Source: Vulcanisaeta thermophila
Lineage (GTDB): Archaea > Thermoproteota > Thermoprotei > Thermoproteales > Thermocladiaceae
Assembly (NCBI RefSeq): GCF_001748385.1
Contig: NZ_BCLI01000004.1
Coordinates: 310,001-374,000 of the forward strand
Length of the DNA: 64,000 nucleotides
Direction: 5' to 3'
Shown here: piece by piece, positions 23,818 through 31,281 of the stretch
Numbering within the stretch: the stretch's first letter is position 1
Layout of the letters: every line of letters begins with the position of its first letter
The notes under the pieces: model-generated
Database searches by the model: none
Told to the model about the DNA's origin: nothing
Seen by the model: only the letters and a program-made list of their open reading frames with translations
Made by a program: the position numbers and the translations under genes

Positions 23818-24018
23818 TTAATATAAATTAATGACTAAATAAATTCATTAAATTACATAAAATATTGAAAAATTATAATCAATGATGATAATATTACTGA
23901 ATTTTTAAGTTTAAATTTACCTCCCTTTTAAATTTAAGCTTTACTCTTCTGCTTCTCAGTAAATGCCGTGGAATATATTTTAAAAGATACTTAATTTTGA
24001 CATCATTTGGGTGAAACA
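23818..24018. other. AT-rich spacer between hisI and the unknown gene
   Basis: A 200-nt spacer of very low GC made of repeated aaatta/aataa words. It holds no recognised gene. The composition shift begins in the 3' end of hisI and continues through the next gene into the 3' end of hisF. Confidence 0.5.
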
Positions 24019-24768
24019 ATGGAGGTGAAGTTCCTCGCAATTCCTGACGTAGTCTCGTACCCATTGCTAATGGCACCTACTGAAACATTAAATAATATAA
24101 ACATTATTTTTAGGGAGCTCAATAAATTTGATGAGATTAATGAGATTGATGGCTTTAATGGAGATATATTTTCCGTCTATATTAAGACAAAAGACATCAA
24201 TAATCTTAGGCCGCGTTGGGTCTTAGTAAGGAATTATATATGGGTTTTAGAGAGAAGACGGTGGTTAATTAACGATAGTGTTGTTGGAACAAAGTATGGG
24301 GGTTCTGTGGCCGATATAGCACTTAGAATTTTTACTCAGACACTTGGCATGAAAATTAAAATAATTAATTACGAAGATCTAGATGAGTTATTATACGATT
24401 ATGAACATGAGAAATTGAATGCAGTAATACTACCACTTTATGATTATGGAGTACTCGGTATACATCCTAATTATCCAATAGATAAATTATTCATGAATAT
24501 TTTAGGTACAATACTTCCTGGACTTTATGCGATAGCAGTTAGAGAGCAGGCGGCTAATATAGTAAAAATGATTTATGTTCAGGGTGTGAAGAAGCTTAAG
24601 GAAAATAATTCAATTAATATATTGAAGGAGAAAATAATTAATACTTTTAATATAAATATTTCAACAAAGTTTCTGAACTTAATTATAAATAATGTCAAAT
24701 TTGAGTTAATGAATAGCAATTGTGTGAATATAATGTGCAGTAGATTAAGGACGATATATAATGTGTGA
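24019..24768 (+). CDS. AT-rich gene inside the his cluster; periplasmic-binding-protein-like fold, function unknown
   Basis: A 249-residue cytoplasmic protein without signal peptide. The layout MEVKFLAIPDVVSYPLLMAP, then FSVYIKTKDIN, then GTKYGGSVADIALRIFTQTLGMKIKI, then LNAVILPLYDYG resembles type-2 periplasmic-binding folds such as MqnA-like or the crenarchaeal DUF3834 family; this assignment is tentative. The gene is far richer in AT and in Asn, Ile and Lys than its neighbours, which suggests recent acquisition or relaxed selection. The ATG at 24019 follows a gggtgaa run; the TTG at 24007 is less likely. It converges on hisF with no gap. Confidence 0.7.
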   Translation: MEVKFLAIPDVVSYPLLMAPTETLNNINIIFRELNKFDEINEIDGFNGDIFSVYIKTKDINNLRPRWVLVRNYIWVLERRRWLINDSVVGTKYGGSVADIALRIFTQTLGMKIKIINYEDLDELLYDYEHEKLNAVILPLYDYGVLGIHPNYPIDKLFMNILGTILPGLYAIAVREQAANIVKMIYVQGVKKLKENNSINILKEKIINTFNINISTKFLNLIINNVKFELMNSNCVNIMCSRLRTIYNV

Positions 24769-27714: not shown

Positions 27715-28755
27715 TTATTTGATTAATTCCTGGAGGTTCTCCAGTAGTTTATTGGCTACGTTTATTGGCGGTACCGTAACCCTTAGGCAGTCCTCACACA
27801 TTACCTTACCACTCAGGTTCCTCAGTATGAAGCCCCTCCTGTACAATTCCTCATAAACCACGTCAGGGTTGCCCACATGGAATGTTAGGAAGTTCGTGAC
27901 CGAGGGGAGTACAGAAAGCCCCAGTGACTCAAGCCTCCCCCTGAGGTACTCCCTGGCACTCCTCATCCTCTCTATACTCTCATCCACATAATGCCTAAGC
28001 TCCAGGGCCTTGGCGACCATGGCCATTGAGGGATATGGTATATTATGCGGTAGGGATATCCTCTTCAAACCCTCTATCACGGGCTCAGAAGCCACCACAT
28101 AGCCAACCCTTAAACCAGCCAGGCCCCATGCCTTTGAGAATGTCCTAACAACCGCAACATTGTCGTAATGCTTAATTAAGTCAATTAGGGTTAAGCCTGC
28201 GAATTCGGCATAGGCCTCATCAATGATTATGAGGGCGTTAAGCCTCGAGGCCAGGTACTCAATGTCACCTCTATTGAATGCGTTCCCTGTTGGGTTATTT
28301 GGGTTGCATATGTAGATTACGCCCGCATCGTAGCCCCTCTTAATTATGTCATCAACGTTGAGTTGATAGTCCAGATTAAGCACTGACTCCTCAACCTTAA
28401 CACCCATGGATTCGGCAATAACCCTGGGCATTGAGTATGTGGGTTCGATCATGAGTAGTTTGTGGTTACCGTGCAGTGCGAATTGGGTAAGGAGCCTAAT
28501 ACCCTCATCACCACCGGCGGTGGCGAATACGTTACCAGCGTCCACGTTGATGTGCCTGGCTATGAGCTCATTAAATGTTGGGTTGAGGGGCTCGGTGTAG
28601 TACCTAATTAAGTCGGGTTCCATCAACACGCTCATGATGGATTCATAGTACTCCCTGGGCAGGAATAAGTTCTCATTGAAGTGGAGCCTATGGACCTTAT
28701 AACCCACATTGGGCTCCTCATAAAAGGCAACCTTAAGCACGTCCCTCCAACTCAT
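27715..28755 (-). CDS. hisC: Histidinol-phosphate aminotransferase
   Basis: A class I/II PLP transaminase of 346 residues. HFNENLFLPREY at the N-terminus, CNPNNPTGNAF, IIDEAYAEFAG and the lysine in VRTFSKAWGLAGLRVGY (Schiff base) identify it, and RVTVPPINVANKLLENL closes the fold. The GTG at 28773 would give an 18-nt longer product, but a TATA-like atatattt lies about 28 nt before the ATG at 28755, so that start is preferred. It is the first gene of the reverse his run. Confidence 0.93.
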   Translation of the reverse strand: MSWRDVLKVAFYEEPNVGYKVHRLHFNENLFLPREYYESIMSVLMEPDLIRYYTEPLNPTFNELIARHINVDAGNVFATAGGDEGIRLLTQFALHGNHKLLMIEPTYSMPRVIAESMGVKVEESVLNLDYQLNVDDIIKRGYDAGVIYICNPNNPTGNAFNRGDIEYLASRLNALIIIDEAYAEFAGLTLIDLIKHYDNVAVVRTFSKAWGLAGLRVGYVVASEPVIEGLKRISLPHNIPYPSMAMVAKALELRHYVDESIERMRSAREYLRGRLESLGLSVLPSVTNFLTFHVGNPDVVYEELYRRGFILRNLSGKVMCEDCLRVTVPPINVANKLLENLQELIK

Positions 28756-28840
28756 CAACGCCCAATGCCCCACACCTAAAAATATATTTCCCTATATACC
28801 ACCACGGAGTCGCATCAGTACTTACGCCCCTTAGTAAATA

Positions 28841-29521
28841 ATGGTGGGGGAGAAAATTAAAAGGGGTTGTTTTTACATAGTGTCAATGTTGGGGTTGGAT
28901 TTCATAGCCAAGGTCATAATAATCAGCGCCTCTGGGGCCTTAGCACCAGGTCCACTAACGGCCTCTGCGGCATCACTGGGCGCCATGGGTGGCTGGAGGG
29001 CTGGGTTTAGGGAGGCTATAGGGCACATGGTGGTGGAGTTCCCGCTGGTTTTGACCATAGCCTATGGATTAAGCACGGTATTTAATAACCCAGTTGTTAA
29101 GGTATTCATGGGATTAGTCGGGGGTTCCTTCCTGTTATTCTTCGCATACCTAACCCTCAGGGATGCTGTGAGGGCTGGGTTCATGGGTAACCCCAGTATT
29201 CGTTATGCCTCAGCCATGACCACGGGAGCCGCCCTATCCCTCTTCAACCCATACTTCATAGCCTGGTGGATTGGTGTGGGTACACCCTTAATAATGCAGG
29301 CATTCCTCACGGCGGGTTTAGTGGGCATTTTAATACTCTACGCATCACATGTATGGCTTGATTATGCTTGGTTAACCTTCGTGGCGTCCCTGGGCTCCAT
29401 GAGCAGGGTGAGGATGAGCGTGTATAGGGGGTTAATGATCGTGTTGGGTGTGGCAATAATGTACTTTGGGGTTTCAATGATCCTTAACTTCCTAAGTGAT
29501 CTCCTGCCGATTATGCGCTGA
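28841..29521 (+). CDS. LysE/RhtB family amino acid exporter
   Basis: A 226-residue membrane protein with about six helices. SASGALAPGPLTASAASLGAMGGWRAGFREAIGHMVVEFPLVL is the LysE-type translocator signature, and NPYFIAWWIGVG is the conserved mid-protein motif. The family exports basic or neutral amino acids; the substrate is unknown here. The start is uncertain: ATG at 28841 or an ATG at 28886 (MLGLDF), the latter closer to the first helix. It is divergent from hisC and convergent with a decayed oxidoreductase gene. Confidence 0.82.
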   Translation: MVGEKIKRGCFYIVSMLGLDFIAKVIIISASGALAPGPLTASAASLGAMGGWRAGFREAIGHMVVEFPLVLTIAYGLSTVFNNPVVKVFMGLVGGSFLLFFAYLTLRDAVRAGFMGNPSIRYASAMTTGAALSLFNPYFIAWWIGVGTPLIMQAFLTAGLVGILILYASHVWLDYAWLTFVASLGSMSRVRMSVYRGLMIVLGVAIMYFGVSMILNFLSDLLPIMR

Positions 29522-29522
29522 A

Positions 29523-29949
29523 TCACCTTATGCCTGAGCTCAGTGAGAGCCTCCATAGGTAGTTTAGGAACTCATCAATGTCCTTCTCAAGCTCCTTAAT
29601 CTCCTCATCACTGATGTGTGAGAACCTGCTCTGTGCCTTTATGAACTCCTTGAGTGGTTTCCTATTCTCCTTCTTCATGTAGTAATCACTGGGTGGGTTT
29701 ATCACAAGCCTATCCTTATCCCACTCGTATAGTGGGAAGTAACCTGTTTCCGTGGCCAGCCTGGCAATCTCTATCATCTTCTCATCCGGGAACCCCCAGC
29801 CTGGTGGGCATGGAGCTAGTACGTGAATAAATGCAGGGGCCCTAATCGAGGTATCTCAGTGCTTTTCTTACCTTATTCGCTAGGTCTATTAGGCATGCTA
29901 TGTTTGCCGTAGCCGCATACAGTATACGATGAGTCACTACAATACCCAT
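29523..29949 (-). pseudogene. Decayed 3' relic of pyruvate:ferredoxin oxidoreductase beta subunit
   Basis: Translation of the reverse strand from an ATG at 29949 gives VVTHRILYAATANIACLIDL, then ANKVRKALRYLD and a stop. One base later the next frame continues RAPAFIHVLAPCPPGWGFPD, then EKMIEIARLATETGYFPLYEW and RKPLKEFIKAQSRFSHI. Together this is the C-terminal third of PorB-type subunits (VATASIAYP..., APCPTGWGF..., ETGIFPLYE..., RKPVEEYL...). The TPP-binding N-terminal half is missing: the pyrC gene ends immediately upstream at 29971. A single T in ATTAGGG (near 29853) causes the frameshift. The C-terminal 84 codons remain open from an internal ATG at 29777. Confidence 0.8.
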
Positions 29950-29970
29950 TATATCCTTAATTGCAAATGC

Positions 29971-31281
29971 TCAATTAATAATTTTAAATGCGCGATCTAA
30001 GGCCTCAATCACCCTCTGATCGGTGAACTCCTGGTTCAACCACGCCAATTCCCCGTGAAGTACTGTGGCGCTCACGGCAACATCAACCTTAAAGCCCCTG
30101 AAGGGTGAGAACCTGGCCTTTGATTGGAACCTGGATGGGTCTATTGAGTAACTAACCTTAGTATTTATTATTGTTAAGTCCGCACACTCACCAATACCCA
30201 GGCCACTATTGAAGTTTAGGAATTTCATGGGCCTCCCATGAAGAGTATTAACTATGTTACTCATGGTCGTGAGGCCCCGCTTCCACAGCGTTAATAATAA
30301 TGGTGCTGTGGTCTCGAGACCCACAATACCGGGCGGTGCATCATCGTAAGGAAGCTCCTTCTCCTGCTCAGAGTGTGGTGCGTGGTCGCTGGCAACCATG
30401 TAAACCTCACCCCTGAGGAACATCCCAAGTAATTCCCTCCTGACCTCCTCACTCCTTAGTGGTGGATTAACCTTACAGTAACCGGGCTTCTCGGCAATCC
30501 TTAGGCACTCCTCCTGGCTTAGGAGCATGTGGTGTGGAGTTACGTCAAAGGTTATGTCCAACCCCGAGTCCCTAATCAACCTGATTGACTGGGGCAGGGT
30601 GAGGTGTGTTAGGTGGACCCTGGCTCCATACCTAAGAACCAGCCTAATTATGTTGTGCACACAGGAGAGTTCAGCCCTGGGGCTCCTAATCTCACCATGG
30701 TACTGGAAGTCCCTGGGGCCCCTGTACTGATTAATTATTAATGGATCCTCACAGTGGATTATGACGGGTATACCAACCTCGGAAGCCTTTTGGAGTAATG
30801 CGTCCAGGTAATCATCACCGCCATAATCAAGAACCTCCTCGGGGAATACCTCGCCTATGGCGTGGGCGCCCGCATCCCTAGCGTCCTTAATCAATGATAG
30901 GTCCTTAACCGCCCCAAAGTACTGCCTAGTATGTAATGGCGACTTTGATAGTAGCTCAATCCTCCTCCTAAGCAGGTCCAGGGTCTTCACGGGCGGCTTT
31001 GTGTTGGGCATGTCCCCTAGGGCCACGAAGCCCCCCGCCAGGGCTGCCCTAGTCCCTGAGTTAATGTCCTCCTTGTAGGATAGTTCAAAGTCCCTGAGGT
31101 GCACGTGAATATCGACCAGTCCTGGGAGCACTATGTAATTACTGGGTAATTCCACGGTTACGCGGCCCCTCAGTGACCCCCCGACCTGTGTTATGACACC
31201 ATTACGTATACCAATGCCCACATTCCTTAACTCGCCGTTTATGTATGCCCTGGTGTTTATGACTACGTCGAACTCACTCAT
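29971..31281 (-). CDS. pyrC: Dihydroorotase
   Basis: A 436-residue amidohydrolase of the class I dihydroorotase type, closing the dihydroorotate ring in pyrimidine synthesis. Zinc ligands are seen in LPGLVDIHVHLRDFELSYKED and in IIHCEDPLI, LTHLTL and MVASDHAPHSEQEK; GFVALGDMPNTKPPV is the family loop. The usual carboxylated lysine position is not obvious in GAHAIGEVFPEE, as in some type III dihydroorotases. The start ATG at 31281 lies about 28 nt after the sufC stop, so the two may be co-transcribed (sufC upstream). Confidence 0.92.
   Translation of the reverse strand: MSEFDVVINTRAYINGELRNVGIGIRNGVITQVGGSLRGRVTVELPSNYIVLPGLVDIHVHLRDFELSYKEDINSGTRAALAGGFVALGDMPNTKPPVKTLDLLRRRIELLSKSPLHTRQYFGAVKDLSLIKDARDAGAHAIGEVFPEEVLDYGGDDYLDALLQKASEVGIPVIIHCEDPLIINQYRGPRDFQYHGEIRSPRAELSCVHNIIRLVLRYGARVHLTHLTLPQSIRLIRDSGLDITFDVTPHHMLLSQEECLRIAEKPGYCKVNPPLRSEEVRRELLGMFLRGEVYMVASDHAPHSEQEKELPYDDAPPGIVGLETTAPLLLTLWKRGLTTMSNIVNTLHGRPMKFLNFNSGLGIGECADLTIINTKVSYSIDPSRFQSKARFSPFRGFKVDVAVSATVLHGELAWLNQEFTDQRVIEALDRAFKIIN

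What the first reader, a model, noticed from the sequence alone, without database searches (positions are those of the whole stretch)
29523..29949. Relic of pyruvate:ferredoxin oxidoreductase beta subunit between pyrC and lysE
C-terminal PorB sequence (APCPPGWGF, ETGYFPLYEW, RKPLKEF) is readable across a 1-nt frameshift, with the TPP-binding half gone. Truncation plus frameshift argues for genuine decay, not a read error. It marks a past por operon or a rearrangement breakpoint.
Basis: partly seen in the sequence, partly recalled or inferred. Interest (0 to 1): 0.5.

Follow-up and report, generated by a model that had tools for sequence, protein, structure and literature searches.

The report
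Displaced remnant of a PorB gene
A heat-loving archaeon carries a short, broken piece of a metabolic-enzyme gene that its close relatives still have whole elsewhere in the genome; it is an ordinary gene fossil, useful mainly as a marker of a past chromosome rearrangement.

Summary
On the minus strand, window 29523-29958 is the last 44% of a porB gene (residues 177 to about 318 of 323), with one in-frame stop and a 1-nt frameshift. The genome is Vulcanisaeta thermophila CBA1501T, an Illumina assembly at 688-fold coverage, so a read error is unlikely.

The ortholog (80-82% identical) was found in 7 of 11 other genomes of the genus; two of those copies are cut or interrupted in the assembly.

It is real decay, but not the remains of a por operon at this place. 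Where an intact copy could be placed, the porGDAB genes belong to a HdrA/HdrC-por block between ilvC and leuC. V. thermophila has lost that block there, keeping only a broken citrate-synthase fragment. In 4 of 4 relatives where pyrC and lysE are neighbours, nothing por-like lies between them. The fragment is therefore a displaced piece at a rearrangement junction.

A codon model shows relaxed constraint on the relic branch and no support for a retained short protein. Three other PorB-type genes remain. This is an ordinary pseudogene. A side result: leuC, but not ilvB, groups V. thermophila with block-bearing species, suggesting the block moved with leuC.

The parts
29840..29958 (-). Upstream piece of the porB relic (from porB codon 177 to the frameshift near codon 216), in the other frame, with an in-frame TAG at 29842-29844
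   Evidence: Pairwise alignment to G008 and G011 porB; codon mapping
29523..29838 (-). C-terminal piece of the porB relic (about codons 216-318), open frame; 84-aa ORF from ATG at 29777; ends SSGIR-stop, lacking the last few codons of intact orthologs
   Evidence: 58% to own paralog, 80-82% to orthologs
29971..31281 (-). pyrC (dihydroorotase); its stop lies 12 nt before the porB homology
   Evidence: TIGR00857 315.3 bits against a cut-off of 279.05; ORF list
28841..29521 (+). LysE-type translocator, convergent with the relic; C-terminus longer than in G008 and G004 (DLLPIMR tail)
   Evidence: PF01810 E 2.2e-34; C-termini compared
27715..28773 (-). hisC-like aminotransferase, first of the his genes beyond lysE; other side of the rearranged junction
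   Evidence: TIGR01141 260.2 bits, just under its cut-off of 276.55; in G008 hisG lies at 580 kb and lysE at 233 kb

Best explanation
The feature is a pseudogene fragment: the 3' 44% of one of the genus's porB paralogs (beta subunit of a pyruvate-type 2-oxoacid:ferredoxin oxidoreductase). Shown: relatives keep the full gene, in an HdrA-HdrC-(citrate synthase)-porGDAB block between ilvC and leuC; in V. thermophila the block is gone from that site except for a broken citrate-synthase piece, and the porB piece sits about 138 kb away between pyrC and lysE. Inferred: the block was lost in a rearrangement or deletion, during which a roughly 430-bp internal piece of porB was captured at a break between pyrC and lysE, where relatives carry other DNA. 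The piece makes no functional enzyme (no TPP-binding half) and is decaying without selection, tolerated because a second complete por operon remains.
For: Homology, stop and frameshift. Relic is sister to all intact orthologs (UFboot 97). Relic-branch dN/dS 0.23 against 0.061 elsewhere (2dlnL 5.16, 1 df); neutrality not rejected (2dlnL 1.48); no difference between the pieces before and after the frameshift (2dlnL 0.54). Block location in relatives and its loss at ilvC-leuC in V. thermophila. porA of the block is absent: best own match 66%, all matches in longer paralog frames. Intact own por operon at C4:599-602k. pyrC-lysE neighbours without porB in 4 of 4 relatives. Illumina MiSeq, 688-fold.
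Against: The roughly 104 residues after the frameshift are still open and well conserved. At sites invariant in all other copies, the relic changed at 4 of 26 before the frameshift but only 2 of 53 after it, a mild asymmetry that could hint at retention or just a young relic. Raw reads were not available. The capture step itself was not observed.
Confidence: 0.9

Rival explanations
1. The C-terminal 84-110 aa ORF is kept and expressed as a short protein, for example a decoy or assembly factor for the remaining POR complex.
For: Open frame of 110 codons; few changes at invariant sites after the frameshift (2 of 53).
Against: The 21 codons between the frameshift and the first ATG are just as conserved although they would be untranslated (0 of 14 invariant sites changed), so conservation reflects youth. 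The codon model shows no difference between the two pieces and does not reject neutrality. No genome among 41 has the short form of this porB; its two shortened copies (G001, G009) are a contig end and a 1-nt gap in an otherwise full-length gene.
Confidence: 0.04
2. A whole por operon once stood between pyrC and lysE in this lineage (a second copy or a moved operon) and was deleted down to this piece.
For: In G011 and G001 pyrC lies only 9.6 and 7.6 kb from porB, so rearrangement can bring these loci together. The relic and the his genes beyond lysE are on the same strand, as por and his are in G002 and G003.
Against: In G011 and G001 the two genes are on opposite strands with asd, lysC and leu genes between them. 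lysE, not a leu gene, adjoins the relic. No other part of the operon is found near it (tblastn of the block's genes over C4:140-380k).
Confidence: 0.1
3. Sequencing or assembly artefact of an intact gene.
For: Only one stop and one frameshift; several relatives do show homopolymer indels.
Against: The gene's first 176 codons are missing, with pyrC 12 nt away instead; 688-fold Illumina coverage; neighbouring ORFs are intact.
Confidence: 0.02

Closest known systems
Archaeal PorB, pyruvate synthase beta subunit (NF008819; Pfam TPP_enzyme_C region)
   Same: The relic aligns to residues 177 to about 318 of the intact genus orthologs, whose best NCBIfam match is NF008819 (400.7 bits against a cut-off of 405).
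   Different: The first 176 residues, including most of the TPP-binding domain, are missing; one stop and one frameshift.
Ordinary prokaryotic pseudogenes (gene decay; PMC522871, seen only in the search listing with the start of the abstract)
   Same: Truncated, frameshifted, relaxed constraint, intact orthologs in relatives.
   Different: Lies away from the operon it came from, at a rearrangement junction; otherwise typical.
por operons of Vulcanisaeta (own C4:599-602k operon, and the HdrA-HdrC-por block of relatives)
   Same: Same gene family; the relic is an ortholog of the block's porB.
   Different: The own intact operon is a paralog (58% to the relic; 68% between its PorB and the block's PorB).

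Membership tests
Pseudogene (decayed protein-coding gene) | Clear homology to an intact gene | tested here: met
   80-82% to orthologs in 7 of 11 other genus genomes
Pseudogene (decayed protein-coding gene) | Disabling lesions | tested here: met
   Loss of codons 1-176, in-frame TAG, 1-nt frameshift
Pseudogene (decayed protein-coding gene) | Absence of purifying selection after inactivation | tested here: inconclusive
   Relaxed on the relic branch (2dlnL 5.16); omega = 1 not rejected (2dlnL 1.48); the branch mixes time before and after inactivation
Pseudogene (decayed protein-coding gene) | No functional product | not testable with these tools
   Needs RNA and proteome data
Functional PorB | TPP-binding domain (Pfam TPP_enzyme_C) | tested here: not met
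   No Pfam match for the relic's open frames; intact ortholog matches residues 53-222
Functional PorB | Co-encoded gamma, delta and alpha subunits | tested here: not met
   None of the block's other genes near the relic; no porA match in the genome above 66%
Pyruvate (rather than other 2-oxoacid) substrate of the intact ortholog | NCBIfam equivalog score above cut-off | tested here: inconclusive
   NF008819 400.7 of 405 bits for PorB; NF040682 461.2 of 550 for PorA

The most novel reading that the evidence does not exclude
The HdrA-HdrC-(citrate synthase)-porGDAB block is a mobile metabolic island of Vulcanisaeta that inserts between ilvC and leuC and travels together with its own leuC; V. thermophila obtained it (or donated it) horizontally, then lost it, leaving a citrate-synthase remnant in place and a porB remnant displaced 138 kb away.
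Probability: 0.3. Interest if true: 0.3.

Novelty: new member of a known kind. Interest (0 to 1): 0.13.

Why it matters
By itself it is one more archaeal pseudogene. It matters slightly as a breakpoint marker. Together with the citrate-synthase remnant at ilvC-leuC it shows that V. thermophila once had, and recently lost, a POR operon next to HdrA-type genes that several relatives keep. The pattern points to gain and loss of a redox block in the genus. Annotators should not call the 84-aa ORF a PorB subunit.

Tried and rejected
Retained short protein: tested by a codon model with separate rates before and after the frameshift and by looking for the same short form in 41 genomes; not supported. 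The raw asymmetry of changes at invariant sites (4 of 26 against 2 of 53) was noted but is weak, and the model does not support it.

Programmed frameshift: rejected, because the start and the first 176 codons are absent and there is also an in-frame stop.

Chimera with the own paralog: the piece before the frameshift is nearer in DNA to the own paralog (0.778) than to orthologs (0.69-0.72), but the tree of that piece is unresolved (UFboot 30); left open.

blastn of the relic against intact porB coding sequences printed no alignment; replaced by a pairwise aligner. A first script for gene trees failed after its table was printed and was repeated with corrected settings. In one search, rows shorter than 0.7 of the longest were dropped, which removed short fragments such as the G007 ilvC end.

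The genome-contig scan returned relatives of at most 68% and did not list the orthologs held under the G handles; only the genus name was taken from it, and none of its 80 loci was analysed further. L083-L088 were fetched but not analysed. leuD of V. thermophila was not found in C4:108-380k but was not sought genome-wide.

Full report
What is there. On the minus strand, window 29523-29958 is homologous to the 3' part of porB. Translation in the frame ending at 29523 gives APCPPGWGFPDEKMIEIARLATETGYFPLYEW... to SSGIR-stop. The piece upstream, IMGIVVTHRILYAATANIACLIDLANKVRKALRYLD-stop, is in another frame. Aligned to intact orthologs, the relic covers porB nucleotides 528 to about 953, that is residues 177 to about 318 of 323, with a 1-nt frameshift and an in-frame TAG at codon 215. 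The homology starts 12 nt after the pyrC stop, and the relic's stop codon is 1 nt from the lysE stop.

Chance is excluded: 58% identity to an own-genome PorB paralog with E 1.2e-30, 80-82% to orthologs of the genus, and matches to solved PorB-type chains.

Organism. The genome held for the window has 2,022,594 bases in 10 contigs; its contigs C1 and C4 have 791,731 and 634,758 bases. These are exactly the figures given for Vulcanisaeta thermophila CBA1501T in PMC5069417 (part 1 of 2 of the whole text read), which was sequenced by Illumina MiSeq at 688-fold coverage. The paper places this strain as outgroup to the other Vulcanisaeta in an OrthoANI dendrogram. G008 has 2,374,137 bases, the size of the V. 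distributa type strain genome (PMC3035369, start of the abstract in the search listing). These two names rest on size; the other G handles are left unnamed.

Intact relatives. Of 41 genomes searched, the relic's own class (80% or more) is found in 7 of the 11 other genus genomes. Five have open frames of 325-329 aa; G009 has a single-base gap in an otherwise full-length gene; G001 ends at a contig end. No such match was found in 4 of 11 (G004, 99% complete; G006, G007 and G010 incomplete). In the 29 genomes of other genera the best match is 58%. V. thermophila itself keeps three other PorB-type genes, one within a complete porG-porD-porA-porB operon at C4:599-602k.

Where the gene belongs. In G008 and G005 the order is ilvB, ilvC, HdrA-like (1226 aa in G008, with FlpD, Fer4 and Pyr_redox_2 domains), HdrC-like, citrate-synthase pieces, porG, porD, porA, porB, leuC, leuD, a LeuA/citramalate-synthase-type gene, then lysC and asd in G005. 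G011 has the same block with ilvB and ilvC on its HdrA side and leuC on its porB side, apart from an added 4-hydroxyphenylacetate-3-hydroxylase-type gene between porB and leuC and no citrate-synthase match. In G004 and G007 ilvC and leuC are neighbours, with about 156 and 67 bp between the aligned ends. In G012, of another genus, the gap is about 139 bp. So the empty site is probably ancestral in the family and the block an insertion. The names ilvB, lysC, asd, thrC and AbrB rest on general Pfam matches or on recalled resemblance; the 109-aa AbrB-like neighbour gave no Pfam match.

What V. thermophila has there. Between ilvC and leuC at C4:199.8-202.7k lies only a broken N-terminal part of the citrate-synthase gene: C4:201145-201423 holds a frame matching L063 citrate synthase at 54% over 61 residues, then loses frame. 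porG, porD, porA, HdrC, HdrA and the N-terminal half of porB give no ortholog-level match over C4:140-380k. Genome-wide, porA's best match is 66% and HdrA's 61%, in long frames of paralogs. The porB piece between pyrC and lysE is about 138 kb from that site.

What is at pyrC-lysE elsewhere. In G004, G005, G008 and G009, pyrC and lysE are convergent neighbours 0.6-1.6 kb apart, with no porB match between them. G008 has a MaoC/mesaconyl-CoA-hydratase-type gene and a 109-aa gene there. That MaoC-type gene has only a 35% partial match in V. thermophila, on another contig. In G011 and G001, pyrC lies 9.6 and 7.6 kb from porB but on the opposite strand, with asd, lysC and leu genes between. Beyond lysE, V. 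thermophila has the his genes, whose hisG lies 346 kb from lysE in G008. The LysE C-terminus is extended compared with G008 and G004. All this marks the place as a rearranged junction. The relic has both ends inside porB, so it is a captured piece rather than the stump of an operon standing here; this last step is inference.

Selection. In a DNA tree the relic is sister to all intact orthologs (UFboot 97). It does not reject 1.0 on that branch (2dlnL 1.48), and finds no difference between the pieces before and after the frameshift (2dlnL 0.54) (the differences were worked out by hand from its log-likelihoods). At sites invariant in all other copies the relic changed at 4 of 26 before the frameshift, 0 of 14 between frameshift and ATG, and 2 of 39 in the ATG frame. 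The relic looks young: against G008, syn-only codon differences outnumber amino-acid changes (55 against 26 codons over the three segments), so most divergence probably predates inactivation.

A side result. ilvB places V. thermophila outside G004, G008 and G011 (UFboot 97), as the paper's OrthoANI does, whereas leuC places it with the block-bearing genomes and leaves G004 and G007 outside (UFboot 100 and 99; 88-89% against 78% identity). ilvC is unresolved (UFboot 30 and 48). leuC may therefore have moved with the block. Only these few genomes were used, so this is a lead, not a result.

Literature. Searches for 'Vulcanisaeta' with 'pseudogene' (6 papers, listing only), 'Vulcanisaeta', 'genome', 'pyruvate' (21 papers, 15 listed) and 'Vulcanisaeta thermophila' (4 papers) showed no title or abstract start about this relic. 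The part of PMC5069417 that I read does not mention it.

Verdict. Observation confirmed. Interpretation partly supported: genuine decay and a rearrangement breakpoint, yes; a past por operon at pyrC-lysE, no evidence. Ordinary, low interest.

Noticed in passing
L066:7146-7424 (G000:C4:201145-201423, outside the window): Truncated, frameshifted citrate-synthase remnant between ilvC and leuC, a second relic of the same lost block.
   Followed up: yes
leuC against ilvB trees, L066, L057, L058, L111, L112, L244: leuC groups V. thermophila with block-bearing species (UFboot 100) although ilvB (UFboot 97) and the published OrthoANI put it outside; possible joint transfer of leuC with the block.
   Followed up: partly
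L057:6535-7899; L060:6346-6853; L058 and L061 between HdrC and porG: The citrate-synthase gene in the block also looks broken or gone in several relatives (split frames in G008, large gaps in G005, no match in G011 and G003).
   Followed up: no
window 29495-29521: LysE of V. thermophila has a C-terminal tail (DLLPIMR) missing in G008 and G004, right at the relic junction; the break may have altered the end of lysE.
   Followed up: partly
window 24007-24768 (+): ORF next to the his genes matching DUF3834 (PF12916, E 1.3e-12), function unknown.
   Followed up: no
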